Below, piece after piece: positions 27,543 to 56,437 of a DNA stretch of 64,000 nt (within the stretch, counting starts at the first letter, position 1; each line of letters begins with the position of its first letter). The notes under the pieces were generated by a model. The model was not told where the DNA came from, did not search any database, and saw only the letters and a program-made list of their open reading frames with translations. Both the position numbers and the translations under genes were made by a program. The stretch comes from Omphalotus guepiniiformis (Eukaryota; Basidiomycota; Agaricomycetes; Agaricales; Omphalotaceae): NCBI GenBank assembly GCA_028554645.1, contig JAQOOI010000004.1:62001-126000 (forward strand). Direction: 5' to 3'.

Positions 27543-28024
27543 AGCGGTAGATCGGGTTGTTCGGTAGATCGGTAGGGATAGGTTGTTGAGTGTGTTAAGA
27601 GGAGCGTAGGCGTTGATGTCGAATGAGAGGCGACTGAGGGAAAGGTCGAGCTCTAGCAGACCAGTTACATAGTACCATGTCAAAGCAAATGAAGTGGCAC
27701 CGAAACGCAAGAAACAATGGCCCGCCGGGGGACTCGAAGAAGCGTACGCAGCGAAGTGGATTCGAACGACTTTCCTTTCTTTTTCCCGGGGGGGTTGGGA
27801 TTCGGGGGGTGTCTTGAGTGGCCTCCGCGATGCAGAAACAAAAGGCAACAAACCCCCTTGCGACATTGAATTGAATACCACAATCCACAGAGAAGTGTAA
27901 CTACTTTGTTCCGTGAAACTTAGATTGTTAAATAGCACTTGAAATTCTGTTGAAACCGGTTGAAATATTCCTGGAACTTCTTCGATCTTTGCGGAATTGT
28001 GTGAGAATCGGTCCCCTCCACACT

Positions 28025-28276
28025 GGATGGATTTCAATGGAACTCACTCTAACTTACTGAAATCGTGAGGAACGTATCCTTGCTCTGCCGCACTTCTTTC
28101 AATGAAACTCGGTGATCACTGACTGAAATCGTTGAAATACAACTGAACTTGGATGGATTTCAATGGAACTCACTCTAACTTACTGAAATCGTGAGGAACG
28201 TATCCTTGCTCTGCCGCACTTCTTTCAATGAAACTCGGTGATCACTGACTGAAATCGTTGAAATACAACTGAACTT
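28025..28276 (+). repeat. Tandem duplication, 2 x 126 bp
   Basis: The segment 28025-28150 is repeated essentially perfectly at 28151-28276. The unit is rich in TGAAA and lies at the left edge of the accessory island. Confidence 0.9.
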
Positions 28277-28299
28277 GACGGCTAGCAAAACCTACTGAA

Positions 28300-28740
28300 A
28301 TGTTACCTGAATCAACCACCACCGATCGTATGAAAACTTTGGTTATATGGGGGGAGATACACTGAAACAGGTAAATGTAAGGGGTGGATTTAACGACGTT
28401 CCTATGAAGATCTTTGGAGGAAAAGCAGGGGAATACAATGAAAAACTGAAAGATAAGGAGCGGAATTCATGACCTGCGTATCCAACTTGAAGAAAACAGG
28501 GGGTACACTGAAAAAAACACGGGGGGATACAATGAAATATTCAGATATAAGCACAGGCATTCATGACGTCCCTATGAAAACTTCGAGAATATTGGGGTTG
28601 CGGGGTACACTGACTCGGAAACTCGGTAATGTAAGAAAAAGACCTCACGACGTTGCGATGAACACCTCAAGAATGGGACGGGGGTACACTGGAACAAAAT
28701 GTAAGCTGTGAAACCTGGGGGGATACACAACGAAGTACTT
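28300..28740 (+). repeat. Degenerate GGGG(G)TACACTGAA-type repeats
   Basis: Four to five imperfect units contain GGGGGxTACACTGAA, followed 20-60 bases later by ACGxxxCTATGAA-like blocks. They differ by indels, so the period varies. They lie directly downstream of the GIY-YIG gene and show no coding potential. Confidence 0.5.
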
Positions 28741-28744
28741 ACCG

Positions 28745-29170
28745 TTACAAGGACGCAGCGCGAGACATTACTGGGCGGATCAAGTCTCTGACGACGTGCG
28801 CTGCCGAGCCTCTGAATTCAAAGAGCTCATTGTGCCTTCGGCGGCAGTGTGCGCAAACCTCCCGGGGCCGGCGTGTGCATATGTCGTCCAGCATCGCATG
28901 ACAGATGTGTTCTGAAATGTGGTCAGTGACGGCGGGGTTGAAAAACGACGACGTGCCTGCACGAATGTAGTGGCGGGCGTGAACTGCGAACCACCACTTA
29001 TGATTTTGCCCCCTACACTGCCTTGCCCACTCCCGTCTTCGCCGCCGAATGTTTGTTGTACGACCAACCTTGAACAGCTTCGTCCCGACAACGTGAAACA
29101 CGTATAAAAAACCTGGGCGGTCGAACGGATACACCCGTTGACACGCTACGCGTACGGGCCTGCAATACAT
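28745..29170 (-). CDS. GIY-YIG nuclease-superfamily protein, T5orf172/MUG113-like
   Basis: The model is exon 1 29170-28963, a 51 bp intron (donor GTGCAG, acceptor TTTCAG) and exon 2 28911-28745, giving 124 residues. The first part carries GFLYVFHVVG-KLFKVGRT-NIRRRR-W, which matches the GIY-YIG-fold core in its T5orf172 form, where Y, K/R and the KVGRT strand are typical. Then follow WWFAV, a helix, and RRPREVCAHCRRRHNELFEF, a probable CxxC-containing element. The usual C-terminal R-LI-P end is present. Such domains bind or cut DNA and are often found in mobile or fast-evolving loci. Whether this copy is catalytic is unknown. The start is the first ATG in frame. The gene is surrounded by repeats. 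Confidence 0.65.
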   Translation of the reverse strand: MYCRPVRVACQRVYPFDRPGFLYVFHVVGTKLFKVGRTTNIRRRRREWARQCRGQNHKWWFAVHARHYIRAGTSSFFNPAVTDHISEHICHAMLDDICTRRPREVCAHCRRRHNELFEFRGSAAHVVRDLIRPVMSRAASL

Positions 29171-29260
29171 GTGGTTGATAAGAAAAACAAGTCGTCGGGA
29201 TGGTCTCGCGACAAAGAGAGTCGAACGGAATGAGCGATGAAAGCAGTGCGTCGTGAATAA

Positions 29261-29552
29261 GTGGTGGGACGCTTCTACGACGCAATGAAAATAAATAAAG
29301 AGCGGCACAAACGGAGAGGCAGTCAATTAAAAGAGGTGCTGAGGATGCGATTGAGGGAGGATGTTGAGGTACTCGCCACTCACCAACGGAGACTTGAAAC
29401 CAACAAAGAAATGAAACTGACGCTGTTTAGGGTGCCGTGAAGTGGTGGGACGGACTTCTAGGCGACGCGACGAAAAATTAAGAGCGGCGCAGATGGAGAC
29501 GCGCTCAATTGAAAGATTTGCCGAGGACGCGATTGGGAGAGGATGGCGAGAA
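29261..29552 (+). repeat. Diverged tandem duplication upstream of the GIY-YIG gene
   Basis: The segment 29261-29372 resembles 29442-29552. Both begin GTGGTGGGACG, share TCTA-GACGC, AAGAGCGGC, GGAGA-GC-TCAATT-AAAG, and end near GAGGACGCGATTG. They are about 181 bp apart and diverged by substitutions and indels. Confidence 0.65.
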
Positions 29553-30049
29553 TGCGACCTATGCACTGGATTGAGCCCCGCTGAGGTAAAAAGTTCGATG
29601 CTTTTTCAAGAAAACAACTACTTGAGTTACATAAAACTCAGAGCTGACCGAAGCTGAACGTGAACGGATTTATTTACCTTCGCACATTGTACAGTTAGGC
29701 ACATTGTACATTTGGACGAGTTTGGAAATGTATCGCTCACTCACAACCTTTGTGAAACGGAGCTAGCAAACGCCTAGAAGAGACTTTTGTCAGATGGATG
29801 ACAACAAGCTTTCAGAAATAGAAATTAGCCACTCACGATGCCTTTACATAGCTTGACATAGAATAATAGGTAAAGTACATACTATATGACCTATAAATGA
29901 TTGTAGCGAAGCGTTCGTCGGCCCTCGGTTGACGTCGCAAGTGACTTTGGATTTGTAGTCAGATTCCTGCCGACACTCAGTTGTGGAACCGACAATTCCT
30001 GAGACGCGCAAAGCAACAGGGGTGTTCATGCGGGGCACAGTCAGGACCG

Positions 30050-30500
30050 ACGATACCTGACAACGAAAACCCAGTGGAGAGAACACAATGGAACAGGGTG
30101 GGATTGAGGGGAAACTCAGTTGGAACCGATAATAGCTGACACCCGCCCGCTGCATCGAAAACCCACTGGAGGGAACAGGATGGAACAGGATGGAACAGGG
30201 GGGAACCGAGGGGGAACCGAGGGGGAACTCAGTTGGAACCGACGATTCCTGACACCAGCTGCAATGAAAATGCATCCTTGAAAACGCAATGGAACAGGGT
30301 GGAAATGAGGGGGAACCGAGGGGGAACTCAGTTGGAACCGACGATTCCTGACACCAGCTGCAATGAAAATGCATACTTGAAAACGCAATGGAACAGGGTG
30401 GAAATGAGGGGGAACTCAGTTGGAACTGACAATTCCTGCCACCAGACCCAAGGGAAATCCACTGCTGAAATTGCAATGGAATATGGTGGAGATGTAGGAA
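30050..30500 (+). repeat. Minisatellite of 88-110 bp units
   Basis: At least four units share the blocks GGAACCGACGATTCCTGACA, GCAATGAAAATGCAT, CAATGGAACAGGGTGG and GGGGGAACTCAGTT. Spacing is 99 bp between the units at 30235 and 30334 and 88 bp to the next at 30422, because an 11 bp sub-repeat was lost. Reading it on the minus strand gives long open frames, but these are repeat artefacts. Confidence 0.8.
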
Positions 30501-31266
30501 ATCCTTCATGCGGGAGCATCACCTAGATACATTGTTAACTTCAGCAGATGAAGGACGAAGATCATGTGGAAATCTCGCCAAACATCCGCATCTATACAAC
30601 CTCGGCTGAAAACCTCAATTTGAGCAGTCTTGCACTGAATTGCGGTTAACATGCATGGAACCCAAACACTCATGCAACCGGTTAGTCGACTTCGGTATCG
30701 TTGGTGAAACCAGGCGGAATTGTGTTGAGTTTTGCAAGTGGATAAGCGGCAGCGCCCCTGAAAAAAACACCTGGAACGAAACGGAATAGACCGAAATCAC
30801 AATGACATCTTACAAGTGAATAAGTGACAGTGCCACTGAAAAAACCTGGAATGAAGCGGAATGGATTGAAACTCAACATGAAATCCTACCCGGGACACAC
30901 CGTCTGTGAGGTATGAATACATACAGTGCAGGGTGCGCGACGACGTTGACTGAAACATACAACATAGAGTTACTCTCGCCAACACATAGGGATAAAGAAA
31001 ACATGAAAGAGATTGAATTTTCGTTGCACAACATGACAATACGCCGATCTAAAAACACAAGTTCAGCCATACCATCCGGCCCCATTCGACCAATAAAAAG
31101 GGGCACCTATTACTCCACGTCGCTCCTTTCCTCTCCGGTAGACTCCTCTGACGAACTGCCATTCTCGTCCTCACTCCCTGGGTCCGACAGGGAATTACCG
31201 CTCAGAGTCGGGTCAACAAACGCTGGTCGCTCGCTGCCAGACGTAGGTCAGAACTCGTTCAGACCA

Positions 31267-34200
31267 CTACGCGCCCAAGCCCACGTACCTATGCAGTTTC
31301 GGAAACCCTTCCTGCTCTTTGTTTCGGAACTCCAAAACGACATCAGCCAAACACTTCCCTTCAGGAATCACCCGCAAACTCTCGATTCCCGATGCCTCAA
31401 ACCTCCCTTGACATTGTTTCTCCAATGTCATGAACAACTGCTGCTGCTGCAAAGCATATGCCACCTGCCCTGGTGACATTCGTAAAGAACCTTCTTGTAC
31501 ATCCTTGGTCCACTGTGTCCCGGCGAGTTCCTGTACGTGGTGACCAGCCCCCGTAGAGGGCTTCCACGTCGTTTGCTTTGATATATCACCCCACACTTGA
31601 GCCATTTTCTGGAACGTCTTGATACACCTATGAAACTCGGCGTGTTTGATTTCGAGAGTCTCTCGCCACCGCTCGAACTCAGCTTCGTCCCTGAAGAATT
31701 TGACTCGGTCCTCTGGTTTCCAAGAATCAATCACCTCATCACCGAGTGCGAACAATCACTTACGCTCCCTCGCCCATTCTTCTGACTCAACATCGTTGGC
31801 AGTTACTTTCCAGATGAAGCCATCAAGTATAGCCCCTGACATTTTGGAACCCTCCACGTGCGCGCCTTCGATTTTCCGCTTTTTCAGCGGGCGTCTGCCT
31901 TCGCTATTATCGTCGTCGTGGTCCGAGTTTCCCCGTGCAGGTGCTTATGCTCGACGTCAATCAACTCAGTCAGCAGCGAGTTTAGAGGTGACGCACCGGT
32001 ACGGCGTGACATTTGGGTCCCAAAATGCCCTATAGCCTCTGTGTACAGTCAGCCCCTGCCTGACACCGCAGAGCAACAAGGTGCCCACCTCGACCTCCAA
32101 CCCCTTGTCCCCTCCTCCTTTTCTCAGATTGAGCCATTGTAATGCCCCCGCCAGACCGACCCTGGAACCCTGGCCTCATTCGCCACAGACTACCATCAGC
32201 TCTGAGAGAGTCGCCCAAAGCACGTTTGACATGCGTTGGCTTTCTATACGTGTCTTCCACCGTCAGCTTTGGACAGGCGGTTGATTTTTCCTCGATCGCC
32301 CCCAGGGCCACCAACGCGCTGCGGTGGCGGTTGTAGTCTTCCAATTGCTGCAATCTCACACGCTCGAACCGCTTGATTTCCTCCGTGCTCCTGGTGTTCT
32401 GCTCCTGACCTCTGTTGTGCACGTTCTTGTTATCAAAGATTGCCGATAACAGTCGGACGGTCGCCTGTAGTGCCAGGATGAGCGACCAGGCCCCTGCCTT
32501 TCGCAGCAATACCTCCCGCTCCGACACCTCCTCCATTCCTGAAGCAGCACGCTCCATCAACGGGAGATCTGAGGGGAGAAATAGCCTTTCCTCCTCAACA
32601 TCTGTGACGGTCAATGCTAACACTCTATCCCCCACATCCGGCATGATCACTCTCTGGCGCTCACGCCATCGGTCTATACGCCGCGACATTCGCTCTCGCA
32701 TTTCTATCACTTGTTCTTCGGCATCCCTATCTGCTGCGCGTCCATGACCCTGCAGACTTCTGACTTTTCGGCGCAATGCTGCTCTGAACACACAATTAGC
32801 TCGTTGCAACCCCCTAGCAATAACTCACTGAGCATCCTCAATCTCCACACCTTCCCTCAAAAACCTCACCACCGCGGACTGTGTCGCTGACATGCCAGTC
32901 CCAAGCACACACGGTAAATCGGACTTCATCAACCGTTGAACCTCCCGACGCAATGTAGACGCTTTTCAGTATTGGTAGGATCAGGTCTCTGCCAGTAGCT
33001 ATCACAGATACTGCACGTACACTCGGAGTGCTCAGTAGCATAGACTGAATGAACCACTCGTTTGTGTTTCCTGTCAAATCTTGGCGACCGATCCATGGCA
33101 TTCCATTCCTCTATCCTATCTTTATGAATGTCGTACAACGCCTGTAGATTGTTTCTCGTCTGGAAGTAACGTTTCTTCGCGGTCTCCAGTTCCTTTTGCA
33201 ATTGCAAACCTGAATCTCCGCATTAGCATCGTCTCACCTCCGTTGACCGACATCAGGATGAACTCACTCATTCCCATGACTTTGCGAGTATTCCACGACA
33301 GAAACACCTGGATAATTGCATCCTGCCGCTGCCCGTGGCTCATTTGACGAATTGACGGGCCCAGCAAATTGAGTTCGGGCCATACCAGCTCAGCAGTTTC
33401 GCCAGGAAAGTGCCCAATGGAATCTTTGTATGACGAGGAGAACAAATACATGCACATATCTAGGTGATTGCGCACATGTGCGGCCGGTATTGTAAACCGA
33501 AACGAATTCGTCTGATGGGCCAGATGCGGAAACCAACGCTTCATGCGCTCCACAACGTGGGCAGAGTAGGTGCAATTACTGTCATAGCTGAGCGGTTGAT
33601 CTGGCACGGAACCCTTGTCAAACATTCGGAGTTCCAAAGCCTTCGCCAGTGCGAGATCGCTATTGGCGAATCTAGAGAGAGAGAATTTTCGGCTTGGCCT
33701 CGTGGGAACGACGGGGAAGGGAACGCACCTCTCGCCTCGCTGCATATCAACGGTGGAGTGGACGAAGATATGGTCACATTGAACGTTGATGACTCCTGTG
33801 ATATCCATCCCTTTGAACTTAAGCCTATTTTGCTTTTCCATCGCCTTGATAAAACCACAGTTAGCCTTCTCCTGAACCAGTCCTTGTGAGTGCTGGCTAC
33901 CCAAATTCATCGGCTCACATACCTCAGGACCTCGCCGTGGACCTGTTACACGGTCCATCTCCGCACCAGCCGTCGTCACCCCCTGATTTCCGGCCTTCTG
34001 TAGCTGTGGAACCTCTGCAAGGTACGCATTTTCTCGCGCAGCACTAGGGAAAACCGATCGCCCTTGGTAAAGCGAGATGTCTGTCGGATCATGGTTCTTA
34101 CTATAGTGGTTGGCCTGAAAATTGCCATCTAGGGTGCGCCTGCAGGCATGTAGGTGGCTAAGAACTCATCAGCACCACTCCTGCCACCCGACATAACTTG

Positions 34201-35275
34201 GCCTGCGTACCGAAGTTCCACTGGCACACCAGCCCACCCTGGCTCCAAATTCACCCCTTCTTCCGGACATGTGGGACAATAGACGACCATGTTGCCTACC
34301 GGGCGGCGGGGAAAGTAGACATCAATTCCATGACCTTGCCCCAACCATTTATTGGCTCGCAGGTAGCTCCAGATGCGTGACACCAACAGGAATTTTGCAT
34401 AAAATTCCTGTATGACTCCAAGTCAGCCACGTAAAAACAAAAGAGAGTATGCACTCAACGGGAATCTCCTGGGGGTATGAGTGGTTTGTGAGCCCTGCCA
34501 GTGCTTTGCAGTAATCGTATGCGGTGGCCTTCGAACACTCGCACAGCACCTGAAACTCTCGTAGAGCACGCAACGTGAAAGCTGTTCCTGGGTCAGTGAA
34601 TGAACCCGGGAATAGATTGGCTTCGAACAATTGCTCCCACTTTCGCGGTGGGCCGGCACACCCACAGAACTTGACTTTTGTACCGTGTACCCCATTGGTA
34701 TCGACAACGGTCAGGAGCAGGCTTTGATGGGCCGCCAAGGGACAGGGATCCCCCCCATGACCTAAATGAACGGCCCAGGTCTCGTCCAAACGAGACAAAT
34801 CATATCTGGTGAAGAAGGTGTCCTCCGGTCCCCAGAATTCGGCCCAATGGAAGGGGTTATGCTTGTGGGCCTGAAGGAAGCACCCTTTACAGAGCGGTCT
34901 CAACTGAAAGCAATCCCTGCAGCGAGTGGTGCGCTCTCCTACACCGCAGTCGCACGCAGTGCCGATCCTAGGGTCTGCGGCCTTCTGCATGTACATGCAC
35001 AAAATGAGCAGAAAATGAACTCCATATTGCTCCAAAAGTGTTGCTCTCTATGCACGCAATTCGTTAGCTGTTCCTTCACGACAATGACGACGTCAATTCA
35101 CCCTTGTCTTGCCCTCTGTCTGGCCTTCGTTTTCACTGGCCTTCCTCTCGCCACTCTCAGGACCAGGCGTCTTAGACGACGTACTGGGAGTTGGTAGCAC
35201 GTAACGCATCACCATGGCTTTCTCAAGCTCACTCTGTGAGACCTGTCCGCGTCCTCGACCCATCGTAGTACCCAA
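31267..35275 (-). mobile_element. KDZ (Kyakuja-Dileera-Zisupton) class DNA transposon, coding core
   Basis: The span is the coding region of a KDZ transposase. The true element ends, terminal inverted repeats and target duplications were not located. Repeats of GGAAA type lie on its left up to about 30.9 kb. KDZ elements are a eukaryotic transposon class that is abundant in Agaricomycetes. Confidence 0.7.
31267..35275 (-). CDS. KDZ transposase with CxC2 cysteine cluster
   Basis: This is a multi-exon minus-strand gene whose N-terminus is not fully resolved; the first supported block starts near 35275. At 34.80-34.95 kb lies the CxC2 zinc-binding cluster (CDCG, RCRDCF, CKGCFLQAHKHNPFH). It is followed by the family block with HGG-CP, CGC, LFEANLFPGSF and an ECSKATAYDYCKAL helix. 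Two introns near 34.4 and 34.2 kb lead to FYAKF, then VVYCPTCPEEGVNLEPGW and RTLDGNFQAN. The RNase H-like core spans about 33.9-33.25 kb and includes CDH, SYDSNCTYS, IPAAHVRNHLDMC, ETAELVWPELN and the closing MSHGQRQDAI-VFLSWN. Asp and Glu candidates for the catalytic triad are in place. The C-terminus (32.8-31.27 kb) is long helical coiled-coil sequence. I saw no stop inside the recognised blocks, so the copy may be intact. The role would be cut-and-paste transposition. Confidence 0.8.
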
Positions 35276-36086
35276 TGTTGAGTCTGTGGGGTGTACCGTG
35301 TCGGTCGATGGTAGTTTTCTCCCAAGTGGAAAGATGAACCAGCCCGTACGATTCTCGAATCTTTCCCATAATGAGCAGTTCGTCCGCCCCGCCAGAAAGA
35401 ATGCGCTTCATCTAGATCTTCGCGGCTCATAGTTCTTTGCCGGACTCATGAGTCGCTTATGTAGCCCCGGGTACAGTGCTGTGCTGTGTCAAAAATCCTG
35501 AAGGAGAGTGTCAAGCAGTTGCAAGAAAAACGCGAGAGACGGGTGCAGTCGGTTGCACCTGATCCGCCCTGACGACGGATCGATTTACCGGTCTGATCTG
35601 GAGAATTGTCCGGCTGCTCGTGGTCTGAGCGTGGGAAGTTGGAGTCTGGGTACTAAGTATGTAGTAATGTACCTTCATCTTTCTCGGAGTTTTTCGTCGG
35701 AGTCAACGACTAAGCTCCTTTCCACTAAATTTCGCTGAGTCATTCTTACACATGCATAGATAACACTCGAATTTCTTGGAGACTTAGCAGGAACATCTCC
35801 TTGCCGTGAAATGTCTTTATTTTAACATATTTATAAGTTATCGGCAGCATGTCCTAAGTATCAACGTTCCTAAGTGGCCCGAGGTGGTGCCTTGGAAGGA
35901 ATACAAAATATACTCATTGTTTGAGTGCAAGCAAGTCTCCAGAAGTGCAATAAGTTACAGCATATCAACGGCTGAACACGTAGAGGATCGATTCACCTTT
36001 GAATGCAGCAGCACGTCATCGTTAATCAGAAGACTTTCAAAGGTAAGGATCTGCCATCGCTACTACACCGTGTTTGAGTATTGGGC
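35276..36086. other. Stretch between the KDZ gene and the next gene
   Basis: The first 160 bases could hold the transposase first exon. Other open frames here are short and unsupported. No repeat was recognised. Confidence 0.4.
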
Positions 36087-36643
36087 TCACGATCCACAGC
36101 GGTGGAAAGACTCACAATACTCCGCAACAAGGTTTCCACTGAGCTCTGTGGGGGTAGGGATGTCGAGCAACACCCGGAACGCAACAAAGCTATTCATAGT
36201 TCGTTCAAACATCCGGTAACGGATGTGGATGCGATCGAGGGCTTTAGCCAGGCGCAATTCCTCCACTGCTAGACAAAAGTCCACCCCGGAAGCGTCCAAA
36301 GTGCCAGGAGGCCTGTGGTCGATGCCTTCGAGGTTGACTAGCTGTGTGCTATTTGACGACAGGACCGCCCATCGTACGTTGAGTGAAATAACAGCAACAA
36401 AGAACTGCTCGCAGAGGAAAATTTGTTCGGGAAATCTTCGTTTGGTGTCAATTATGAAGTCCTAAGAAAGGGTTGGTCAGGATCCAAATTCAAGATTAGT
36501 AGGGTGTTTACCGCAGTTATGCCTAGAGTGCACAAATGAGAGAGTTCAGTCCGGTCAAGAGCGCCTGTGACAACAGCCACGACAAATTTTTCGCTTTTTT
36601 TCGCGACGTTCACGACGTGTCCCTCGAAGGAGTCGGAAGACAT
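36087..36643 (-). CDS. Unrecognised two-exon protein
   Basis: Exon 1 36643-36512 and exon 2 36461-36087 flank a 44 bp intron (GTAAAC...TTCTTAG) and give 168 residues. The second exon stays open for 125 codons and the junction is in frame, which supports a real gene. Residues read as alternating strands (KFVVAVVTGAL, EQFFVAVISLNVRWAVL, VNLEGID), then a long helix from VDFCLAVEELRLAKALDRI to the end. It recalls a single-domain alpha/beta protein, but I recognise no family. It lies between the transposase and the 37048 gene on the same strand. Confidence 0.5.
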
Positions 36644-37047
36644 CACTGTGGGCGGCTATTGGGGCGAACCAGCGTAGTAGCGGCTCCTATGTATGCAAAC
36701 AATGTATATGAATAGTTTGCGGTGCCGGCGTCATTTGGCCTGGACCGAACCCCTGAACCGTCTATTGAGATTGAATCGAGGAAGAGAGAGTCAGAGGGGA
36801 CGTACCAGTATAATTGGGGTTATGTGCGAACTGAAGTACCGACATACACCGAATCAATACGGAGCATCATTGTAAAACCATCAGTCCAGGCGAGATAGTG
36901 GCACATGGACCGGAATAAAGACGAACCGCTCTCAAGGCTCAGTCTGACCTAGTCTGACCCAAGGAAGACGTTGACAACAAATGCTGATGGGGTTATAATG
37001 AGCAAAAAAAAACCTGAGGCTAATAACTGGCTAATACAGTCCTCAAG

Positions 37048-37835
37048 CTAATACATTTGATACTGATATTCAAGTTCTCTATTGTCTCGTGCGCCCCGAA
37101 GTTCGTTCAACCCGGCGTGCACAGCCCAGTGTATACACTCCTCGAACCAGCGCACCACATCTGTCATGGTCTTCAAGATTGTCGTCACTTCGCGCCATGT
37201 CTCTGCAGATGGACCCATTGATTCAACTTTCGTAGCAGCTCTCGAAACCTTCATTTGAAGTCGGAGTAATGTATGATGGGGTCTGATGAGATACTGCAGC
37301 ACAAGACGTTTGCGATTTTCAGGATGTACTGAGCACCTGTCAATCAGCGCTTGAACAGAGCGATCGAGATGTACAGCAGGGTTGTCTTCGATTTTTGAGT
37401 CCCATCGTGATTGGACGCATCGTATATAGCTGAGCTTTTGCTTGATCAAGCGGCTGCGATTAAAGCGTTGAGCTAATCGGAGAGTGGCGTTTGGAGGGAG
37501 GTATGTACAGACCTAGGATCAGCACCTCGCGTCTCAATCCAGTTTTTACGTTTTTCTGTACGCCTATAAGATATATTATCGGCCCTTGAAGTACTTGAAT
37601 CGATACAAGACTCACAATCTTTGTGCCTCGAGTGCATCATCAAGGTCTTCTGCCGCACGTCTTTCCCGCCTGTGGGCATTGATAGCCTCGCGGTTCCTGA
37701 AATTGAAAACAAAGAGCAGTGAGCAAAAACATTCAGAGGCAAGGAAATTATTCACGCTGCGTAGTGTTTTTGGGAGTACGACCGTTGCGCTTCACGTTTC
37801 TGAGCTGCTGTAGTATATAGTTTACGTCGCGGCAT
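37048..37835 (-). CDS. Unrecognised four-exon basic/helical protein
   Basis: Exons 37835-37756, 37696-37616, 37563-37513 and 37453-37048 splice through three 52-59 bp introns into 205 residues, all junctions in frame. The N-terminus (MPRRKLYTTAAQKREAQRSY) and the next segment (NREAINAHRRERRAAEDLDD) are strongly basic, like the arginine/lysine-rich starts of many lineage-specific Agaricomycete proteins. The C-terminal half is a helical bundle-like region with paired leucines and tryptophans (RWFEECIHWAVHAGL). Nucleic-acid binding by the basic N-terminus is a guess. A 5 x 177 bp array ends at its start codon and may act as promoter. Confidence 0.55.
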
Positions 37836-38720
37836 TCAGAATTTAGTCTGAGAAGATGAGAGTCGGAGCCAAGTGTTACAAGCGAACTCAAGTGCGTAAA
37901 TAGACCGTACATTGGTGGTCTGAGATTTTGCTCAGCAATACTGTTTGCATGCACCTTCTTCCAACTTGAGATAATACATGAGAAATATGTTACCAGCACT
38001 TCTGTGTAGTTTGACGTAGATCGGTCTGAGAAGATGAGGTCCGAGCCAAGTGTTACAAGCAAACTCAAGTGCGTGTATAGACTGTACATTGGTGGTCTGA
38101 GATTTTGCTCAGCAATACTGTTTGCACGCACCTCCTTCAAACTTGAAATAATACATGAGCAATATGTTACCAGCACTTCTGTGTAGTTTGACGTATATCG
38201 GTCTGAGAAGATGAGGTCCGAGCCAAGTGTTACAAGCAAACTCAAGTGCGTGTATAGACTGTACATTGGTGGTTTGAGATTTTGCTCAGCAATACTGTTT
38301 GCACGCACCTTCTTCAAACTTGAGATAATACATGAGAAATATGTTACCAGAACTTCTGTGTAGTTTGACGTAGATCGGTCTGAGAAGATGAGGTCCGAGC
38401 CAAGTGTTACAAGCAAACTCAAGTGCGTGTATAGACTGTACATTGGTGGTCTGAGATTTTGCTCAGCAATACTGTTTGCACGCACCTCCTTCAAACTTGA
38501 AATAATACATGAGCAATATGTTACCAGCACTTCTGTGTAGTTTGACGTAGATCGGTCTGAGAAGATGAGGTCCGAGCCAAGTGTTACAAGCAAACTCAAG
38601 TGCGTAAATAAACTGTACATTGGTGGTCTGAGATTTTGCTCAGCAATACTGTTTGCACGCACCTTCTTCCAACTTGGGATCATACATGAGAAATATATTA
38701 CCAGCACTTCTGTGTAGCAT
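37836..38720 (-). repeat. Five tandem copies of a 177 bp unit upstream of the 37048 gene
   Basis: The landmark AAGTGTTACA recurs at 37871, 38048, 38225, 38402 and 38579, exactly 177 bp apart each time. Units are 90-98% alike by eye. Because 177 is a multiple of three, the minus strand shows an open frame of about 319 codons with a 59-residue repeat. That frame ends inside the adjacent gene in another phase, so I read it as a by-product. Confidence 0.9.
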
Positions 38721-38850
38721 GAGCTATCGTTGACAAGTGATTCTCAAGAACAATCCCGAAGCGCGGGGCCTCTTTGGCAATCGTGGAACATAGGCTGGAA
38801 CAACTGATACATTCATTGCGCATTAAATGTAATGTATAATCCCAATACAT

Positions 38851-40440
38851 TCATTGATATACATCAAGGTTTAGCATACTATGTCCAAGGTCTGTAAGTG
38901 TAGATAAAAGTCCTAACCCCAATGACCAACGTTGTTGCTTCCTAAACCTGTCCTCTTTGACCTCCTGTTCACTCATTGCAGCCAGACGATCCTCCTGTAA
39001 CTGAAATCCATTGTCAACCCAACGGAACAGCCCACCCGGCATATACTGGGTAAAGGAATAGCGACGCTCGTTCTTCCGGATGCGGGTGTTGGAGTGGCGA
39101 CAAACGCCGGATGGTATGGCGACCACGGTCCCAGGTGGAAACTCAATAACCTTCCTGGCGTCCCAGAGAATGATATGGCCCCCGTGCGTTGGGTCGTAGT
39201 CGCCTAGTGCCCAGATAAAGCACAGGCCGAAGGGTAGATTGCCATGATCAATGTGGGGTATGGTTTCAGTTAGCGGGCCAAAGTTGAATGTGGCGGTAGG
39301 AAATACACTGTTGTGGAAGATGCGGACAAGACTTTCGTCATGTTCAAGAAGGTGCGTAAGATACGTCTGATAGTAATCATAGAGGTGGGGGGCCCAACTC
39401 TTGAACACCCCAGTCGCAAATCCGGAAAGGCGTTTGAACGCCCAGTGTTCCACCAGCCCCCGAAGGACCTTAGTGTTCCGCTTATTGTGAATAAGATTCC
39501 CTGGGCGCTACAACTGGTGAGTATTGGGAATTAGATGGTGGGGTGACACTCACAACTTGCCCTCCTCCAAAAGAGATCCCAGTTGACAATGCAGGAAATT
39601 TGCCCCTGCGATGGCCTTGTTGCTCCGCATTGAAGCTGCAACAAGCGCGCAAGCGCTCTAGTTCATCAGCAGCAGCCTTGGTGCATTCCTGCCATTTAGG
39701 GTCTGCAGGCGCATCCACAGCAACGGCAAAAACCCGACCTTCAGAGTCGGCAAATGGGGTGGAAGCACTGACGTGGAACATAGTCAGTGCACACCTAAAG
39801 ATCAATCTGGAAATTACACACTCTGGGTTATACCGCACAAGCTCGAATTTGAACTTTGATTTGGGACCAACAACTTCATGCAGCCCGTACGCCCGGTCTG
39901 GAGTGCCAGAAGGGCGATCCTTCTTTTCCTTTAGCCCGACGTACGCGGTCGAAGTGACCGGTGCATCACTGAACAGACTGAACGAGTTGTGTATGGGTTG
40001 TGACGCAGTGTTATGGCGATTCTCAATGGGGGGGCGAGGTTTGATATCGTCCGCGCGCGTTTGGTAGGGGCTGCTTGACGTTTACGATCCCTATTCTGCT
40101 TGCTGGACTCTTTAGAGCGTTTGAGTCGACGGGCGCGGGTTTTAGATACGCCTAAGGAGGTGGCTGCGGCAGAGTCAGCGCCGAGGGTAGGAATTGGCAG
40201 GGGGTGGGGCCTGAGAAGCGGTGGCGGGGTGGGGGAGGAGGGAGGGGAGGATAAAGGTGAGGATAAAGGTGAGGAGGTGGCGGATGTTGGTGGGGGTGGC
40301 GATGAGCTGAAGGGGTCTGCAGAAGTTGGGGCTTTGTCAAGGTAATCATAAGCGCCTTCGTGCTCCAGAGTGCGGCGAAGTGCCGCTGAAAACTCGAACG
40401 CGGTTCTAACAGCAGCCGTGGGTTTGGGTGGGGGAGGCCC
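38851..40440 (-). CDS. TET/JBP-family 2-oxoglutarate/Fe(II) dioxygenase
   Basis: The last two exons are clear: 39507-38851, and 39554 upward to about 39990, separated by a 46 bp intron. A proline/serine-rich and basic N-terminal region (to 40440, where an acceptor CTCTACAG stands) is in frame locally, but its join to the catalytic part is unresolved. Catalytic signatures in order are ADSEGRVFAV, HRRGKFPALSTGISFGGGQ, a helical block (FATGVFKSWAPHLYDYYQ), SVFPTATFNFGP, the HxD iron site in PHIDHGN, GGHIILWD, the distal His in CRHSNTR, the 2OG-binding Arg in RRYSFTQY, and GGLFRWVDNGF. These match the fungal TET/JBP domain. In the family the enzyme oxidises 5-methylcytosine or thymine in DNA, inside the nucleus. 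The iron and 2OG residues look intact. It lies near the KDZ transposase and on the same strand. Confidence 0.85.
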
Positions 40441-40451
40441 TGTAGAGGGAG

Positions 40452-41035
40452 GTTAGATTCTTGACACGCCCAGCCCTAGCCCTCCGCCCTCAGTGCAAGC
40501 CTTCGGAGAGCACCCGAGATTCCAAAGAATGTGCAGTATCCTCGCATTCCCGTTGCGCGAGTATTCAAGGAACTGTAACATTCCTCGGGTTCAGGCGATC
40601 GTTGAAGTATTGCAGATGAAGGGAATCGGGTAGTAGCTAGTAAAGAGTGGACGTACAGGGATTAGAGAGCTTTTGACGTTTTTTGGGTCTCTTCACCTCT
40701 CTGTTTTCCAGAGTGACGCGAGCCGCAGCTGAAAATTCGTAGTCGGTTTTAACACCAGCCGGTGTGTTGGACGCTGTAAAGCGACGTTAGATTCTTGTGG
40801 TGTTCAGCCTCGCCCTCCCCCCTCAGCGCAAGCCTTCGGAGAGCACCTGAGATTCCAAAGAATGTGCAGTATCCTCGCATTCCCGTTGCGCGAGTATTCA
40901 AGGAACTGTAACATTCCTCGGGTTCAGGCGATCGTTGAAGTATTGCAGATGAAGGGAATCGGGTGGTAGCTAGTAAAGAGTGGACGTACAGGGATTAGAG
41001 GGCTTTTGACAATTTTCGGCTCGCTTCATCACTCT
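40452..41035 (-). repeat. 334 bp tandem duplication including a 5' exon of the TET/JBP gene
   Basis: The segment from 40452 is repeated from 40786 (period 334), including a nearly identical 220-base intron-like stretch. Exon-like copies at about 40410-40360 and 40765-40655 (minus strand) encode related peptides around the shared EFSAA and R-TLE core. A third partial copy lies at about 41035-40985. Each copy is followed by the same donor GTACGTCCACTC where that part is retained. Confidence 0.75.
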
Positions 41036-41172
41036 GTTTGAAAGATGGGGGTGAGTGTGGCAAGGAGGCTAGGGGAAGACTTCTGCATCAACAAAACTTT
41101 GGCGATGTCACGAGATTCAGATTTATCATCATCCATCCCACGGAGGCCCAAGCAAGGTTTCTGCCGAGCGTG

Positions 41173-41570
41173 GCCCTAGTAGTCACGTGTACCCGGGATC
41201 AGCAAACCGTAGGAAACTACTTGCACGATCTCTAGCCAATCATGTATCCGCGATAAGGATATAAATGGCAAATCTTTGTGGCAAAGTCAGTTTGCTACGT
41301 TGACAAATAAGCTCTATTTCAGCAGTTTTCCTTCGATTAGGCTCGCTTAGGCTCGCTTACAGCAAAAATAAATCAAATGCACCAGAGAATCTTTATAGAA
41401 ACCTTGCCAAAACTCATGGTTTGGGTTACACTGCTGATATTTGATTTTGCGGTTTCATCGCAGAGCTGAACCAAAGCGATTGGATGGCACTAACCGCGAT
41501 CGGCTCGTCTCAGCTAAGCATATGGAAGGTAAAATCTAGTGCAGATTGGTCCTAAACTCTTACGGGAAGT
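41173..41570 (+). repeat. Dispersed repeat, copy A
   Basis: It starts with CACGTGTACCCGGGATC and contains GGCTCGCTTACAGCAAA, ATAAATCAAATGCACCAGA, GCTCGTCTC-GCTAAGCATAT and AAAATCTAGTGCAGATTGGT. A shorter copy in the same orientation lies at 53309-53555, about 12 kb away. Indels separate the two copies. No open frame is present, so it could be a non-autonomous transposon or old terminal repeat. Confidence 0.75.
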
Positions 41571-41967
41571 CATCCACTTTTCTCCGATAGAAAAACGCCA
41601 AGCCTCGCTACATACGAGAAATCTCAGGAAATCTCCCCAGAGGCTCCAGCTAGCTCCAGCCGTTTTACTAAGCAATTATGAGGTTGACTGCCCGTTGAGC
41701 TTCTATTTGTGGTATGCCCCAGAAGCCTTTGGAGCCTGTTGGAGCAAGAAAGTTTTCTAGCGATACGGAATCTTTTCTACACAAAGCCACTTGGCGACGT
41801 GTGGCTCATAAGCTCTAATGAACCTTTTTGAATATACATAGATTTCTCGCAGCTCGATGATCAACAAAACATAGTGGGGGGGGGGGAATACTTTGTCTCA
41901 AGGAAAAACAGACGGCATCTGATGATCTGATGTGTCGAGCTTAACATTGAAACAAATGGCACGCGTG

Positions 41968-42572
41968 CTAAGTAATGGGAAGGCGAGCATAGGCGACTAC
42001 GAGTAGGTCTACTAGGTCACGCCGATCCTCTTGTAGACGGTCGGTGTGCGCGCGCAACGATGACAACTGGTTCCGCAAGCTATCGAGCTCAGCCTGCAGG
42101 GTGGCCTCCCGCGCGGCTAGTGAGCCCTCCTCGACTTTCTTCTCCTCCAGGCCTTGCTCAAGCGCAGCGAGCCGGCGGAGGACTTCAGGCCCAGTGAGAG
42201 TAGGCAAAGGCGCCTGGGCAGCGGCGCCTTCTGGGCTGATGCGGTACACTGCGTCATGGATCAGGACGGGCTATGGTAGCTAGACAATGTTTAGTACTTA
42301 CGTTGCACCTCTGACCAGAGACGAGATTCCACCTGGTCTAAATTATCCTGTCGGCTTGAAGACCCGTTCCAAGTCAGTCCAAGCTCTGCGAAGTCCGCCC
42401 TCATGTGACGGAGAATGTTGGATTCAGAGCTCCACGTATCTCTCCAAGGTCTCGCGCGTGTTTCGGACTGTGACCAGTACGAATGCGACCCTACTGCCGG
42501 AGGGATGAAGGTTTCGTCGCGGGGTGCGCTGGTATTGTTCTGCTCGTCGACCTCGTTCAAGTTCTCTGCCAT
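41968..42572 (-). CDS. Coiled-coil protein, function unknown
   Basis: The likely model is exon 1 42572-42309 and exon 2 42270-41968 (188 residues) with a short 38 bp intron using donor GTGCAA. The neighbouring GTAAGT donor would break the frame. The N-terminal half is polar with tryptophans (SHSYWSQ, RPWRDTW). The C-terminal half is a long heptad-rich coiled coil (LRRLAALEQGLEEKK, LDSLRNQLSSLRAHTDRL). No signal peptide or catalytic motif is seen. It may be a structural or adaptor-like protein, or a gag-like relic. Confidence 0.5.
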
Positions 42573-43414
42573 GAGATAGTGTGGATCAAGGACGGTACGG
42601 TAGGTTGGTTCGGTGCAGCGCAAAGTCCTCCTGCCGCTTTAAAGGGGTTTGCTAGTAATGAGCTGCAGGCCCGGTTTTCTGTACCGGCTCGGTCTACTTA
42701 GGTCGGATGTAGCCTGATGTAGCGTACCGGCAATGTAAGGTGCTTGACATATGCCGGTTACACGACCCTGCCACCTGGTGCGATTCGGAGCCGCGTAACT
42801 GAACAATGAACCCTAAATAATAATGAAGCTCTGAGTCTGATTTTCAATGATGAAATCTATCAGATCTTCTTCCGGGCGCCTGCATAGAAGGGTCACACTG
42901 TCAATGATGAGATATGAGATCTTGTCCCCGGCGCCAGGCGCATGCGGCGTCGTGTCTTACGCGACAAGGTCCACCATCCATATACAATATTTCTTATTCG
43001 CGCTACAGACAGATTGTGATACATGTGAGATAAGCAATTTATAAACATATGACCTGGTCACTACTGTAAGAAAGGGGTGGTTGAAAAGAGGACGCCGACA
43101 TACCGGGCTTGTTACATCGCAGCGTGCACCGCTGTCCTCTGCTTATTATTATTTGCACTCGGGCCTTTGACTGGAGAAGGGACAATTAGCTCACTACCTA
43201 TTCAAAAAACTGCTTGGAAAACCCACCTCGGCTCTTCGTACGCCACCCGTCTCCGCTTGCGTGGTCGGCTATCTTCTGGGCGGTCATTGAGGAGGCGTTT
43301 CAACCGTCCGGACGCGACTGCATCCCAAGCCAACGCGCTCGACGATGTGCACGAAGGTTCCGTTTTCATGACACTGTCACGCTCGCGCGGTCGCTCGACA
43401 CTGAAGACGTTCGG

Positions 43415-43931
43415 TTGTTCAGACGCGACCGATTCACAAGTCAGTTCGTACCTGTCCAACAACGTCGTGTTACTCACCTGCGATCTGCCCCTTTCTTGAC
43501 GTCTTCGTCTGTGCGGTTGATAGTGACTAGGGAAATCGGGAGATCGGACGCGACTGCGTTACAAGTTGATTCAGGCGCACTGAGGACGTTCCGTTGTTCA
43601 GACGCGACCGATTCACAAGTCAGTTCGTACCTGTCCAACAACGTCGTGTTACTCACCTGCGATCTGCCCCTTTCTTGACGTCTTCGTCTGTGCGGTTGAT
43701 AGTGACTAGGGAAATCGGAAGATCGGACGCGACTGCGTTACAATTTGATTCAGGCGCACTGAGGACGTTCCGTTGTTCAGACGCGACCGATTCACAAGTC
43801 AGTTTGTACCTGTCCAACAACGTCGTGTTACTCACCTGCGATCTGCCCCTTTCTTGACGTCTTCGTCTGTGCGGTTGATAGCGACTAGGGAAATCGGAAG
43901 ATCGGACGAGACTGCGTTACAAGTTGATTCA
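43415..43931 (+). repeat. Three tandem copies of a 179 bp unit
   Basis: TTGTTCAGACGCGACCGATT recurs at 43415, 43594 and 43773, exactly 179 bp apart. Copies differ at only a handful of positions. As 179 is not a multiple of three, the reading frame shifts between copies, so the array is non-coding. It contains GCGACTGCGTTACAA and TCACCTGCGATCTGCCCC blocks. Confidence 0.92.
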
Positions 43932-43978
43932 GGGGATTGCATGGTGGAGGCGTATAGTTGGAGGAAACGCAGACGACG

Positions 43979-45415
43979 TACTTACTTATATGTCCAGCTG
44001 TGATATTTGTGAAGGTCTTGAAGTACGTGATAAATTCTGAGCATTTATATGTTTTGCATGGAACATATTTGTTAGAAAATGCTTGTGGTTGTTCACTTGC
44101 TACTTTGGAATTGCCTGCCTTGCCGCTGTTTATGTGTGTGGGTTCACTCAGACTGATGCCTGCCTGTCTCTGTCATGTGATCGCTGCGGGACCACGCATG
44201 CTAATTGAGGACCCCCGACAATTGGGGGGACAGTCGGATACGGATCCACCTACAAAGTGGCCTTTTTTCGGTGAAGGTAGGATACGACCCCCACTAAAAG
44301 TCCACCTATTGCTGATTTTTCCACGCTGAGGTGAGGTACTATTGTCCACGTACAGGGTGCCAACTGACGAGCAGCTCGGATATTTGTCCACCTACAAAAA
44401 TGTTTAGCAGTGTTTACCACACCCGCTTGATTGACTGAAGTGGCTCACCGGCCGGCCACCGGCTTTAACTCAACCCTCCACGAGCCCTTCCTCTTGTTTG
44501 CTGATGTCAAATTCGAGCCAACTGTGGCCAAAGGTGGATGAAATAGGATGAAAATTGACGAGCTGGACAATGTTTACAGGACATCTCAGGAAAAATTTCT
44601 TGCTAATTAGGGATACTCTTACAATGCAACAGCACTATTATCTATACAGGCCCGCTGTACCAGTATCTTATTCAAAATTCTAGTCAATTTCCCCCTCTGT
44701 TTCCCCCTACTGATGGCTGAAGCACCACTAGAATCTCGCTCTCAACACCTAGAATCATATATACGTGCTTAGAAATAGCCTCGGAATTTTTTTTAGGATT
44801 TTTCGAAATTTTTTTGAAAATTTAGAGGTCGGATACGATTTTCCACCTACTGAAGGCGAAAATCGGAGGTCGGATGCACAATCCACCTACAGGCAACCCA
44901 AAAAAGGCAGTTTTCGTGTCCACCTACAAACCCCGAAAATCAGTGATTTTAGTATTGTTGCGCACCGTTTTGGGAGGTCATGCTGAAATCACGTGTGTCA
45001 ATTTAGCTTCCTAACAAGTGCGTGTCTTCTACGTGTTCATTTGGTTACTGCTCCTGATGTATAAGTAAGCCAGTGAGGAGCAAATACAGTTGCAACGTTG
45101 TTCACACTTGCGTAATCACAGATTACTCATAAGCAATACTAGGGGATGACTCGGGAGACTACAGACGACTTATATGTCCAACGGTGATCTTTGAGAAGGT
45201 CGCGAAGTACGTGATAAATGCTGAGATATAGCGCTGAGAAGCCAGTGTGTGAAGTTGAGACCATGTACTTACTTATATGTCCAACGGTGATATCTGCGAA
45301 GTACGTGATAAATGCTGGCTGAGATATAGCGCTGAGAAGCTGTGTGTTTTGAATGGAACATGTTTGATAGAAATTGTTTGTGGTTGTTCAATTGCGGCTT
45401 TGGTATTGCCTGCGA
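43979..45415 (+). repeat. Segment present three times around 44-45.4 kb
   Basis: A roughly 150 bp sequence containing ACTTATATGTCCA, AAGTACGTGATAAAT, TTTTG-ATGGAACAT and TTGTGGTTGTTCA occurs at 43979-44130 and 45266-45415. A truncated copy (first half only) lies at 45167-45233. All are in the same orientation, with clear divergence. Confidence 0.75.
44219..44945. repeat. Recurrent GTCGGAT / CCACCTAC motif clusters
   Basis: Two clusters (about 44230-44400 and 44825-44945) carry repeated GTCGGAT(A/G)C followed 10-25 bases later by CCACCTA(C/T), about seven CCACCTA copies in all. The segments between them are unrelated and contain no gene. Confidence 0.55.
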
Positions 45416-45542
45416 CTATTAACAGTGACATCCTGGCTTCTGGCCTCGTTGTCACCAAGTGACCCTCTGAATTCATTTGGTGATAACACGAGGGTCTTCA
45501 TCACGTGAGCCTCCAAGCTCCCTTATAACAGTGACACGACAC

Positions 45543-48244: not shown

Positions 48245-48983
48245 GGAGTAGATCGTTAGGTAGTACCGCCCGGGCAATGATACATCGCGCCTGCAGGATC
48301 TGAAGGTACTTATCTTTTCAAACACTTGGTACCAGTTATCGTCTCACAATTATCAGGGACATTTCGTCGGGAGTCTTACGATGTTCGAATGTACTTATAA
48401 TTACACCGCTTTGTACCAACCCTTCCCTCCCCGTCATTGTACCCTATACTTATACTGCTTTGTATCGTTTCATCCCTGCCCGTCGTCGTACCATACAGTC
48501 GCGATGATTCTGAAGATCTTGAATTGTCCATGATCCATACCTCTCCCTTCGTTGTACCGTACAATCACGATAAATTCGGTTGTTGAAGTTCCTGATACGC
48601 AGACTGATTACTACTCAAGCTGAAGTTAAAATCCGGCTAAAACGAACTCGTACCCACCTGGGCACCGGCCCAGGCCACCAATCAAGTTATGCACGCACGG
48701 GTTTGGTCCTCGTCTTGGCCATACTCACTGTTCTCCTCCCAATATATGTTGTTTTAGTGCTTAACGAAGATGAGGTGGTACGCTCCGTAGGATTGTGAAA
48801 ACAGGTGGTATATTCATTTGCTGTCTATGCAAAATGAGAAGGTAATACGTTGCGTGATAAATACGCACAAACAGAAACAAAAGCTTTGTAATGGCAAATT
48901 GTGGCCGCCAAACTGGATTACAGGTGAGATACGATGTCGTTTTTTCAGCGGAACACGGCATGTACCACTCATGTACTTTGTAG
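48245..48983. other. Intergenic stretch with short GTACCxTACA repeats
   Basis: Between 48400 and 48570 the words GTTGTACC(G/A)TACA and CTTTGTA(C/T) recur four to five times in loose array. No gene is supported. The last part holds the promoter of the gene at 48984. Confidence 0.4.
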
Positions 48984-51105: not shown

Positions 51106-51814
51106 AACTTTCTTGTTTTCGTTGTCGTCGTGTTTTCGATCATGCTGTGATACCCTGTGTGTTAACGTCCAATGTAATTGTACACTCGTTCTGCCGTCCT
51201 CATGCGGGCCTTAGCTCAATAACACCACACCCGACCAATCTCAATACTTTTTCACACGCTTTTGGGTGGGCGGGTGGTTTAGAGATGGACTATGGCTTTC
51301 AGGCTGAGACAATTTCTAAGGACTGGTTCGAAAGCGAAAGCGGGAGACTACTATGCCATAAGGAGTGAGACCAATGGTTTAGGGTTACTCTAGACTTAGG
51401 TCGTCAAATTACCCCCCACGTACTGTAATGACAAAGCTCTTGCCATATTCAGAGTGGCCTTTCAAGACTAGAGGTTGACGGAGGCAACAACAACCTTGCC
51501 GCGTAATTTTCTGCAAAGTATATGACGACAACAAATTGTAGTTCTTCAAAGTAAAGTTCAGACGTTAGCATGATCAAAAATTGCATGAACAACATCGGCC
51601 GAAAAGCTACCAGCATATCCCGAAGTTTGACAAAGTCTAGCGAGGTCACGGTTGTAATAAAGCCTAAGGGTGTAAGAGTGTCTGACGTGTGTATTTGGTT
51701 GGTACATTATGGGTTTGGAGAACCTCGCTTGGCAGCAAAGTGATGCTCGTGTTCATTCCGAGCTATAGAGTGCGACACCTAAAGCTACAAGAACATAATG
51801 AGACAGGTCATCCT

Positions 51815-53555: not shown

Positions 53556-53632
53556 TAGGGCCGGGCAATTGAATTCATGAGGTTACACGGCGTGGTCTGG
53601 CGTGGTCCTGCCATGGACGCCCGACAATAAAT

Positions 53633-56256: not shown

Positions 56257-56437
56257 GCATGCGGTGCTAGAGGGCCCAGCGGCGAAATTTTACGGGTGAA
56301 CTTTGCATCCAAGCGGGGTTTCAGGTAGTTTCAGTGAGTATTCGCTGGTTGGAACCTACTACACTGACCGAGCCTGTGAAAACTCTGGTCCTTTCACTGA
56401 AAACCTTGCCACAACAACAATCGCAGCAAGCCGCGGG

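What the first reader, a model, noticed from the sequence alone, without database searches (positions are those of the whole stretch)
31267..40440. KDZ transposase and TET/JBP dioxygenase side by side on the same strand
A KDZ transposase with CxC2 cluster and a TET/JBP-type oxygenase with visible HxD, distal His and 2OG-binding Arg lie within 9 kb. Expansion of TET/JBP genes alongside KDZ transposons is described for Agaricomycetes (established knowledge). This instance also has two unnamed spliced genes between them (36087 and 37048) that could belong to the same unit.
Basis: partly seen in the sequence, partly recalled or inferred. Interest (0 to 1): 0.85.

Follow-up and report, generated by a model that had tools for sequence, protein, structure and literature searches.

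The report
Giant cargo-carrying mushroom DNA transposon

Summary
The pair is real and part of something larger. A KDZ transposase (CxC2 + KDZ) and a TET/JBP-fold oxygenase lie on the minus strand with two spliced genes between them. Comparing copies in the window's own genome shows that the mobile unit is window 27890-60429 (32,540 bp): five left ends and four right ends fall on the same bases, and two of three copies complete on one contig have exact 7-bp target duplications. C19 has no substitution against the window copy. The unit also carries a T5orf172-domain ORF, a probable Crinkler-RHS-type kinase and unknown genes; it has no terminal inverted repeats. The window contig seems to join halves of two insertions. 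The oxygenase folds like CcTet/NgTET1 but lacks CcTet's Gly331/Asp337 at the ungapped positions, and its frame is not intact in every copy. Its closest relative in a tree is carried by a different KDZ family of the same genome (11.6 kb, 351-bp inverted repeats, 8-bp duplications). In C78, 18 of 26 substitutions are C-to-T at CpG, a trace of methylation. TET-carrying Kyakuja elements are known; size, cargo, oxygenase type and its passage between KDZ families are the new parts.

The parts
27890..60429 (.). whole mobile element, 32,540 bp
   Evidence: five copies share the left base, four share the right base; target duplications
27890..27930 (+). left terminus GAGAAGTGTAACTACTTTG...
   Evidence: identical in C7, C19, C34, C53, C78; also heads a fragment on C16 and, over 36 bp at 97%, on C20
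60390..60429 (+). right terminus ...CATCTAGTTAAGTTACAG
   Evidence: C7, C19, C78, C44 stop at the same base
27883..27889 (+). left-flank 7-mer ATCCACA; does not match this contig's right flank
   Evidence: homologous flank without the element at C15:73627
60430..60436 (+). right-flank 7-mer CTTTGAT; matches the left flank of the C53 copy
28748..29326 (-). ORF with T5orf172/MUG113 domain (GIY-YIG-type nuclease fold, as recalled)
   Evidence: PF10544 9.6e-9, PF13455 1.1e-4
31267..35263 (-). KDZ transposase gene: exons 35263-35102, 35047-34460, 34407-34211, 34139-33729, 33671 onward; ORFs 32030-32824 and 31267-31755 probably its 3' part (inferred)
36087..36643 (-). spliced gene, 168 aa, no Pfam family; matches seen only in copies of this element
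37048..37831 (-). accessory gene, 207 aa, basic N-terminus; distant relatives (28%) next to TET in the 11.6-kb KDZ family
37862..38869 (.). 177-bp tandem repeats
38851..41029 (-). TET/JBP-fold oxygenase gene; catalytic exon 38851-39500; two tandemly duplicated 5' exons
   Evidence: exon 3/4 region uncertain and frame differs between copies
40475..41039 (.). duplicated 5' exon/intron unit (232 bp, 94%)
   Evidence: (D6)
43399..43935 (.). 179-bp tandem repeats
46536..48101 (+). 521-aa ORF, C-terminal protein kinase fold, possible restriction-endonuclease-like part before it (Crinkler-RHS-type architecture, inferred); upstream exons perhaps within 45543-46054
48984..51105 (+). unknown gene, two long ORFs (416 and 356 aa)
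51808..52919 (-). ORFs of unknown function (123 and 244 aa)
54312..55387 (-). ORFs of unknown function
56438..59226 (+). unknown gene(s), ORFs 297, 469, 132 aa
60011..60237 (.). 34-bp subterminal repeats near the right end
   Evidence: D5
28024..28275 (.). 126-bp tandem pair near the left end; C78 has one unit

Best explanation
Window 27890-60429 is one DNA transposon of the KDZ superfamily, Kyakuja-like (7-bp target duplication, no terminal inverted repeats), enlarged to 32.5 kb by cargo. Shown: fixed ends, 7-bp duplications, at least five insertions, near identity of copies, gene content. Inferred: its own KDZ transposase moves the whole 32.5 kb; the TET/JBP-fold oxygenase, where intact, removes or alters methylation on element DNA and so keeps it expressed or mobile; the other genes (T5orf172 domain, Crinkler-RHS-type kinase, unknowns) are cargo that serves the element or came along. 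The oxygenase passed between this element and another KDZ family within this fungal lineage.
For: Five copies begin at the same base and are collinear; four right ends stop at the same base. Exact 7-bp duplications at 2 of the 3 copies that have both ends on one contig (C19 TTAGTTT, C78 AAATCAC), and between C53-left and C7-right (CTTTGAT). C19 versus window: 0 substitutions over 27890-60429, ten short indels to 60107. C34 and C53: 0 and 1 substitutions over 27890-39999. C15 holds the left flank of the C7 insertion without the element. The two sides of the C19 site lie about 94 bp apart in 4 other places of the genome, at 80 and 91% identity, the junction itself not aligned. KDZ and CxC2 domains. 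Oxygenase fold and catalytic residues. Passage of the oxygenase: giant and sister-family TETs pair with support 0.98 in a tree of 85 sequences, while the giant's KDZ query lists no match at the sister's KDZ, C20:2079322 (capped list). CpG decay of C78: 18 of 21 C-to-T changes at CpG, p 1.5e-9.
Confidence: 0.8

Rival explanations
1. Segmental duplication of a host region that happens to contain a KDZ transposon and a TET gene, not a transposon of 32.5 kb.
For: Near identity over 32 kb; many genes of other kinds inside.
Against: Flush ends at the same two bases with unrelated flanks, and exact 7-bp duplications.
Confidence: 0.05
2. Nested elements: a smaller Kyakuja-like element into which another element carrying the right-hand genes inserted; the composite now moves as a unit.
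For: The right half carries other genes, many on the plus strand; a repeat present at 41346-41564 and 53349-53555 could mark an inserted segment.
Against: Three of the four right ends stand beside a 7-mer whose partner abuts 27890 (C19, C78, and C7 through C53); the fourth (C44) has no known partner. Searches showed no separate long copy of the parts they asked for, but one search did not list its own long matches and the 43-50 kb stretch was not searched as DNA.
Confidence: 0.2
3. The pattern in the window is an assembly error: separate loci joined through repeats.
For: C7 left and right 7-mers do not match, and C53 supplies the partner of the right one; C34, C44 and C53 contigs break inside the element with noisy ends.
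Against: C19 and C78 are each complete on one contig with matching duplications on both sides.
Confidence: 0.05
4. The oxygenase is not a 5-methylcytosine oxidase but a 2OG oxygenase with another substrate (another DNA base, RNA or protein).
For: Neither the single sequence nor a 20-sequence profile finds CcTet at E up to 10, while a control gene from the same genome does at 5e-13. Positions +5 and +11 after the first His are Asn and Cys in 20 of 20 aligned sequences, Gly and Asp in CcTet. Two of 86 hits carry the name prolyl 4-hydroxylase in one source.
Confidence: 0.35

Closest known systems
TET-carrying Kyakuja transposons of Agaricomycetes (Kojima 2025, PMC12730594; abstract, introduction, methods, results and legends read, discussion only in passages)
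   Same: KDZ transposase, TET/JBP-fold gene, 7-bp target duplications, no terminal inverted repeats
   Different: GA..AG instead of CA..TG termini; oxygenase lacks the AG-type Gly/Ser and Asp; 32.5 kb with further cargo; closest oxygenase relative on a TIR-bearing KDZ family, whereas that paper reports Kyakuja and Zisupton TETs as clearly separate. Element lengths in its supplement were not available to me, so I cannot say that 32.5 kb is unmatched.
Zisupton-type KDZ elements (8-bp duplications; PMC12730594)
   Same: The 11.6-kb sister family here (C20:2076801-2088395, C53:106400-117980) has 8-bp duplications (read by eye), 351-bp inverted repeats and the same TET-then-accessory order
   Different: The giant has 7-bp duplications, no inverted repeats and a very distant transposase
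Cryptococcus KDZ1-3 (PMC12810828, passages read)
   Same: KDZ superfamily, mobile, multi-copy
   Different: about 9-11 kb, 139-241-bp inverted repeats, 4-8-bp duplications, CxC1; no TET in the passages seen
Starships (PMC12134995, search listing with abstract start only)
   Same: Very large fungal element with cargo genes
   Different: Starships are classed by a tyrosine recombinase and described from Pezizomycotina; this one has a KDZ transposase, and its oxygenase relatives are from mushroom genera
Crinkler-RHS (CR) proteins with REase plus kinase (PMC5289972, passages read; Zhang 2016 itself not held)
   Same: Kinase at the C-terminus with a conserved E...E-K region before it
   Different: No Pfam Crinkler match in the window's own ORFs; lies inside a DNA transposon

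Membership tests
KDZ superfamily transposon | KDZ transposase domain PF18758 with Cys cluster | tested here: met
   2.7e-37 and CxC2 7.6e-27
KDZ superfamily transposon | discrete ends with target-site duplication | tested here: met
   7-bp duplications at C19 and C78, and C53-left/C7-right; C7 itself has none
Kyakuja (as in PMC12730594) | 7-bp target duplication | tested here: met
Kyakuja (as in PMC12730594) | no terminal inverted repeats | tested here: met
   end-to-end alignment scores within the range of shuffles at all four lengths tried; only TGTAACT shared
Kyakuja (as in PMC12730594) | 5'-CA..TG-3' termini (stated for two L. bicolor families) | tested here: not met
   ends are GAGAAG...TTACAG; therefore called Kyakuja-like, not Kyakuja
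Kyakuja (as in PMC12730594) | position in a tree with reference Kyakuja, Dileera, Zisupton | not tested
   reference sequences not available
TET/JBP dioxygenase | fold closest to TET enzymes | tested here: met
TET/JBP dioxygenase | HxD...H facial triad and 2OG-binding Arg | tested here: met
   20 of 20 aligned sequences; role of the Arg inferred
TET/JBP dioxygenase | Pfam Tet_JBP above curated cut-off | tested here: not met
   22.2 bits against 34.9; hence TET/JBP-fold oxygenase, not a filed TET
TET/JBP dioxygenase | oxidises methylated bases | not testable with these tools
   needs enzyme assay
AG-type TET of transposons | Gly/Ser and Asp at the positions of CcTet Gly331 and Asp337 | tested here: not met
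   Asn and Cys at +5 and +11 in 20 of 20 aligned sequences, assuming no gap
PE-type TET of transposons | HxE in place of HxD | tested here: not met
   HxD in 20 of 20
Starship | tyrosine-recombinase captain gene | tested here: inconclusive
   none among 29 window stretches scanned against Pfam; not every ORF was scanned
Crinkler-RHS protein | kinase domain | tested here: met
   Foldseek kinases E 3.9e-6 on a model of mean pLDDT 62; Pfam Pkinase only 0.004, under its cut-off
Crinkler-RHS protein | REase domain | tested here: inconclusive
   conserved E161/E165 region in 6 of 6 aligned sequences, model poor there
Crinkler-RHS protein | Crinkler header domain | tested here: inconclusive
   no Pfam match in window ORFs; weak (0.02) in relative P0090 only, 1 of 5 relatives scanned

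The most novel reading that the evidence does not exclude
Mushroom-forming fungi have giant cargo-carrying DNA transposons driven by KDZ transposases, a counterpart of Ascomycete Starships on a different enzyme, which pick up an anti-silencing oxygenase of a distinct, so far unclassified TET/JBP-fold type and swap it between KDZ lineages; copies that escape this protection carry CpG-deamination scars.
Probability: 0.3. Interest if true: 0.82.

Novelty: new variant of a known kind. Interest (0 to 1): 0.6.

Why it matters
It gives a KDZ-TET element exact ends, copy number, relative age and cargo from sequence alone, which makes the idea that transposon-borne TET enzymes counter DNA methylation testable: near-identical copies at known sites, and one older copy with CpG scars. 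It suggests that fungal cargo transposons of tens of kilobases need not be Starships, and that TET genes can pass between KDZ lineages in mushroom-type fungi, which the one recent survey did not see for its AG type.

Tried and rejected
Rejected: a 9-kb unit with ends near 30.5 and 41.2 kb (no copy ends there). Terminal inverted repeats. TET as CcTet/AG type. Decay of the C44, C34 and C53 copies: their differences are mostly insertions that pile up at contig ends, so I read them as sequence errors, not mutations.

Led nowhere: empty site for C78 (only its own flanks found). Homologues of accessory protein 37048 in the protein database: none at E 0.001. Sizes of the nearest Kyakuja-like relatives (C38, C72, C79/C49/C36, C41, C16/C42/C78): letters not available. 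Supplement of PMC12730594 (no look-ups allowed), Iyer 2014 and Zhang 2016 (not held). Synteny in other fungi: no eukaryotic genome collection or relatives were on offer. (14-kb DNA query) did not list its own long matches, so its silence about other copies is weak. Searches for giant KDZ or basidiomycete cargo elements in print: searches showed none in titles and abstract starts; only open-licence papers are held.

Rows dropped: for I hand-merged 98 KDZ matches into 55 loci and 113 TET matches into 75 loci, leaving out secondary exon rows; the C44 KDZ was not. Alignment A1 uses 19 of the 86 hits. The tree was given 84 of those 86 hits plus the giant and one sister TET and kept 85 of 86; no other TET of this genome was in it, and it is midpoint-rooted.

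A weak spot of my own: the TET model bridges a frame break between exons 3 and 4 with a presumed intron; one search suggests that a length difference between copies is the likelier cause. Search and structure results rest on the parts either side, the structure on the catalytic exon alone.
Full report
What was checked. The finding names a KDZ transposase and a TET/JBP oxygenase within 9 kb on the minus strand, with two unnamed spliced genes between them. Pfam confirms the transposase (KDZ 2.7e-37, CxC2 7.6e-27) and gives a weak Tet_JBP match to the oxygenase (8.9e-5, below the curated cut-off). Gene models with GT-AG introns stay open for the transposase through 33122 and for both middle genes. 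The oxygenase gene has two tandemly duplicated 5' exons; the region of exons 3 and 4 is uncertain.

The real unit. The window is G000:C7:62001-126000 of a 42.5-Mb, 80-contig genome. KDZ matches with the same scores lie on C19, C34, C53 and C78. Aligning these loci to the window shows that all five begin at window 27890 (C34 matches one base more, by chance) and run collinearly through the KDZ-TET pair and beyond. The right end is window 60429 in C7, C19, C78 and C44. The element is therefore 32,540 bp. The flanks differ at each site. C19 is flanked by TTAGTTT on both sides and C78 by AAATCAC, exact 7-bp duplications. C7, the window copy, has ATCCACA on its left and CTTTGAT on its right; CTTTGAT is also the left flank of the C53 copy, whose contig starts inside the element. 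The simplest reading is that the assembler joined two insertions through this long repeat; recombination between copies is the alternative. C15 carries the left flank of the C7 insertion without the element (96.8% over 774 bp, continuing differently at the insertion point). By distinct 7-mers there are six insertions (ATCCACA, TTAGTTT, GGTCCGA, CTTTGAT, AAATCAC, ACATTGT); by left ends alone, five. The GGTCCGA and ACATTGT ends lack their other side.

Age. C19 has no substitution against the window (27890-60107; 60108-60429 identical), and ten short indels. C34 and C53 have 0 and 1 substitutions over 27890-39999; further on, insertions and substitutions pile up toward their contig ends, which I read as sequence error. 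C78 has 26 substitutions over 28150-53488; 21 are C-to-T on one strand or the other, 18 of them at CpG, where 22.6% of cytosines are CpG (binomial p 1.5e-9). The direction is inferred from the other copies agreeing with each other. C78 was not aligned over 53489-59215 apart from 53500-54700 (100%). In the 11.6-kb sister family, 9 of 10 substitutions between two copies are C/T at CpG. A short flank control (C15 against C7) shows 4 of 16 substitutions of this kind. This is the mark expected of methylated CpG. In another agaric, Marasmius oreades, repeats are CpG-methylated and active transposons less so (PMC9674265, passages read). CpG is not depleted overall in the element (observed/expected 0.90, left part of the window 0.95).

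Contents. From left to right: an ORF with a T5orf172/MUG113 domain (minus); the KDZ transposase; gene 36087 (matches only in copies of this element); gene 37048 (relatives of 28% at C20, C53 and twice on C76 beside the sister family's TET, and a decayed relative of 61% at C79:469325, itself near a TET piece); the oxygenase; on the plus strand a 521-aa protein whose C-terminal part folds like protein kinases and whose relatives and conserved E...E-K region suggest the REase-kinase class of Crinkler-RHS proteins (PMC5289972, passages read); then genes of unknown family. The 521-aa gene is found whole only in the C7, C19, C78 and C44 copies; C65 holds a 73-residue piece at 95%, and the best near-full-length host relative is 37% identical. 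Tandem repeats lie near both ends and inside. There are no terminal inverted repeats.

The oxygenase. A model of the catalytic exon built on an alignment of 20 sequences (mean pLDDT 83.7) finds CcTet and NgTET1 first; human TET2 and CMD1 score no better than PHD2. Neither the sequence nor the profile finds CcTet by sequence, while another TET gene of this genome, C46:181495, does at 5e-13. CcTet reads HRDTSGPIEGMD at the metal site; the family here has Asn and Cys where CcTet has Gly331 and Asp337, in 20 of 20 aligned sequences (ungapped comparison). PMC12730594 reports Asp337 as conserved in Kyakuja TETs and essential for 5mC activity of CcTet, and HxE as the mark of its PE type. The enzyme here fits neither; I did not see the residues of the PU type, and whether Iyer 2014 already covers this type I could not check. 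Relatives occur in Lentinula, Gymnopus, Armillaria, Trametes, Boletus, Mycena and others, mostly named hypothetical or uncharacterized proteins, in two cases prolyl 4-hydroxylase by one source.

Link to KDZ and passage between families. 25 of 75 TET loci lie within 6 kb of a KDZ locus and 25 of 55 KDZ loci have such a TET, about 1.2 expected (family copies are not independent). The ten KDZ loci outside this element that are most like ours (50-66% over the matched pieces) have no TET within 6 kb; one, on C78, has a TET 17 kb away. The KDZ loci that do have one are 27-28% identical to ours or not's capped list. One of these, C20:2076801-2088395, is 11.6 kb with 351-bp inverted repeats and 8-bp duplications, as in Zisupton. 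Its TET pairs with the giant's TET with support 0.98 among 85 sequences. Both have the order TET then accessory gene on one strand. So the oxygenase, perhaps with the accessory gene, seems to have passed between KDZ lineages; other TETs of this genome were not in the tree. PMC12730594 found no such passage for its AG type.

Mechanism. Shown: ends, duplications, copy identity, gene content, CpG decay. Inferred: movement by its own KDZ transposase; oxygenase acting against methylation of the element. The second inference follows the proposal in print (PMC12730594, abstract) and is weakened by the missing CcTet residues and by frame differences between copies.

Judgement. Not an artefact and not merely a neighbouring pair. 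The kind (TET-bearing KDZ transposon) is known; this is a large, cargo-rich variant with an unusual oxygenase. Kyakuja-like is used, not Kyakuja, because the CA..TG ends reported for two families are not met and no reference tree could be made.

Noticed in passing
window 27889/60430: The window contig seems to join halves of two different insertions: left 7-mer ATCCACA, right 7-mer CTTTGAT, the latter matching C53's left flank.
   Followed up: partly
window 60430-64000: The right flank belongs to a repeated family with several copies on C72 (78-94%) and one at C7:146-148 kb.
   Followed up: no
C20:2076801-2088395 and C53:106400-117980: An 11.6-kb KDZ-TET family with 351-bp inverted repeats and 8-bp duplications, 99.76% identical; 9 of 10 substitutions are C/T at CpG.
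   Followed up: yes
C46:181495-181911 (L025): A CcTet-like TET gene (5e-13 to CcTet) not within 6 kb of a listed KDZ locus; the genome holds two sequence-distinct TET kinds.
   Followed up: partly
C79:469209-472370: Decayed relatives of the accessory gene and of the TET close together (61-70%, with stops), perhaps an old copy of the element.
   Followed up: no
C16:208366-208627; C20:239938-239973; C62:292086 and 294739: Short pieces like the element's left or right end alone, possibly non-autonomous or decayed relatives.
   Followed up: no
window 40058 and 39481: The oxygenase reading frame differs between copies (2-bp tract difference; 28-bp insertion in C78); real or sequencing error unknown.
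   Followed up: partly
window 41346-41564 and 53349-53555: A roughly 200-bp repeat (69%) present twice inside the element.
   Followed up: no
C34, C44, C53 contig ends: Read-like insertion noise where contigs break inside the element.
   Followed up: yes
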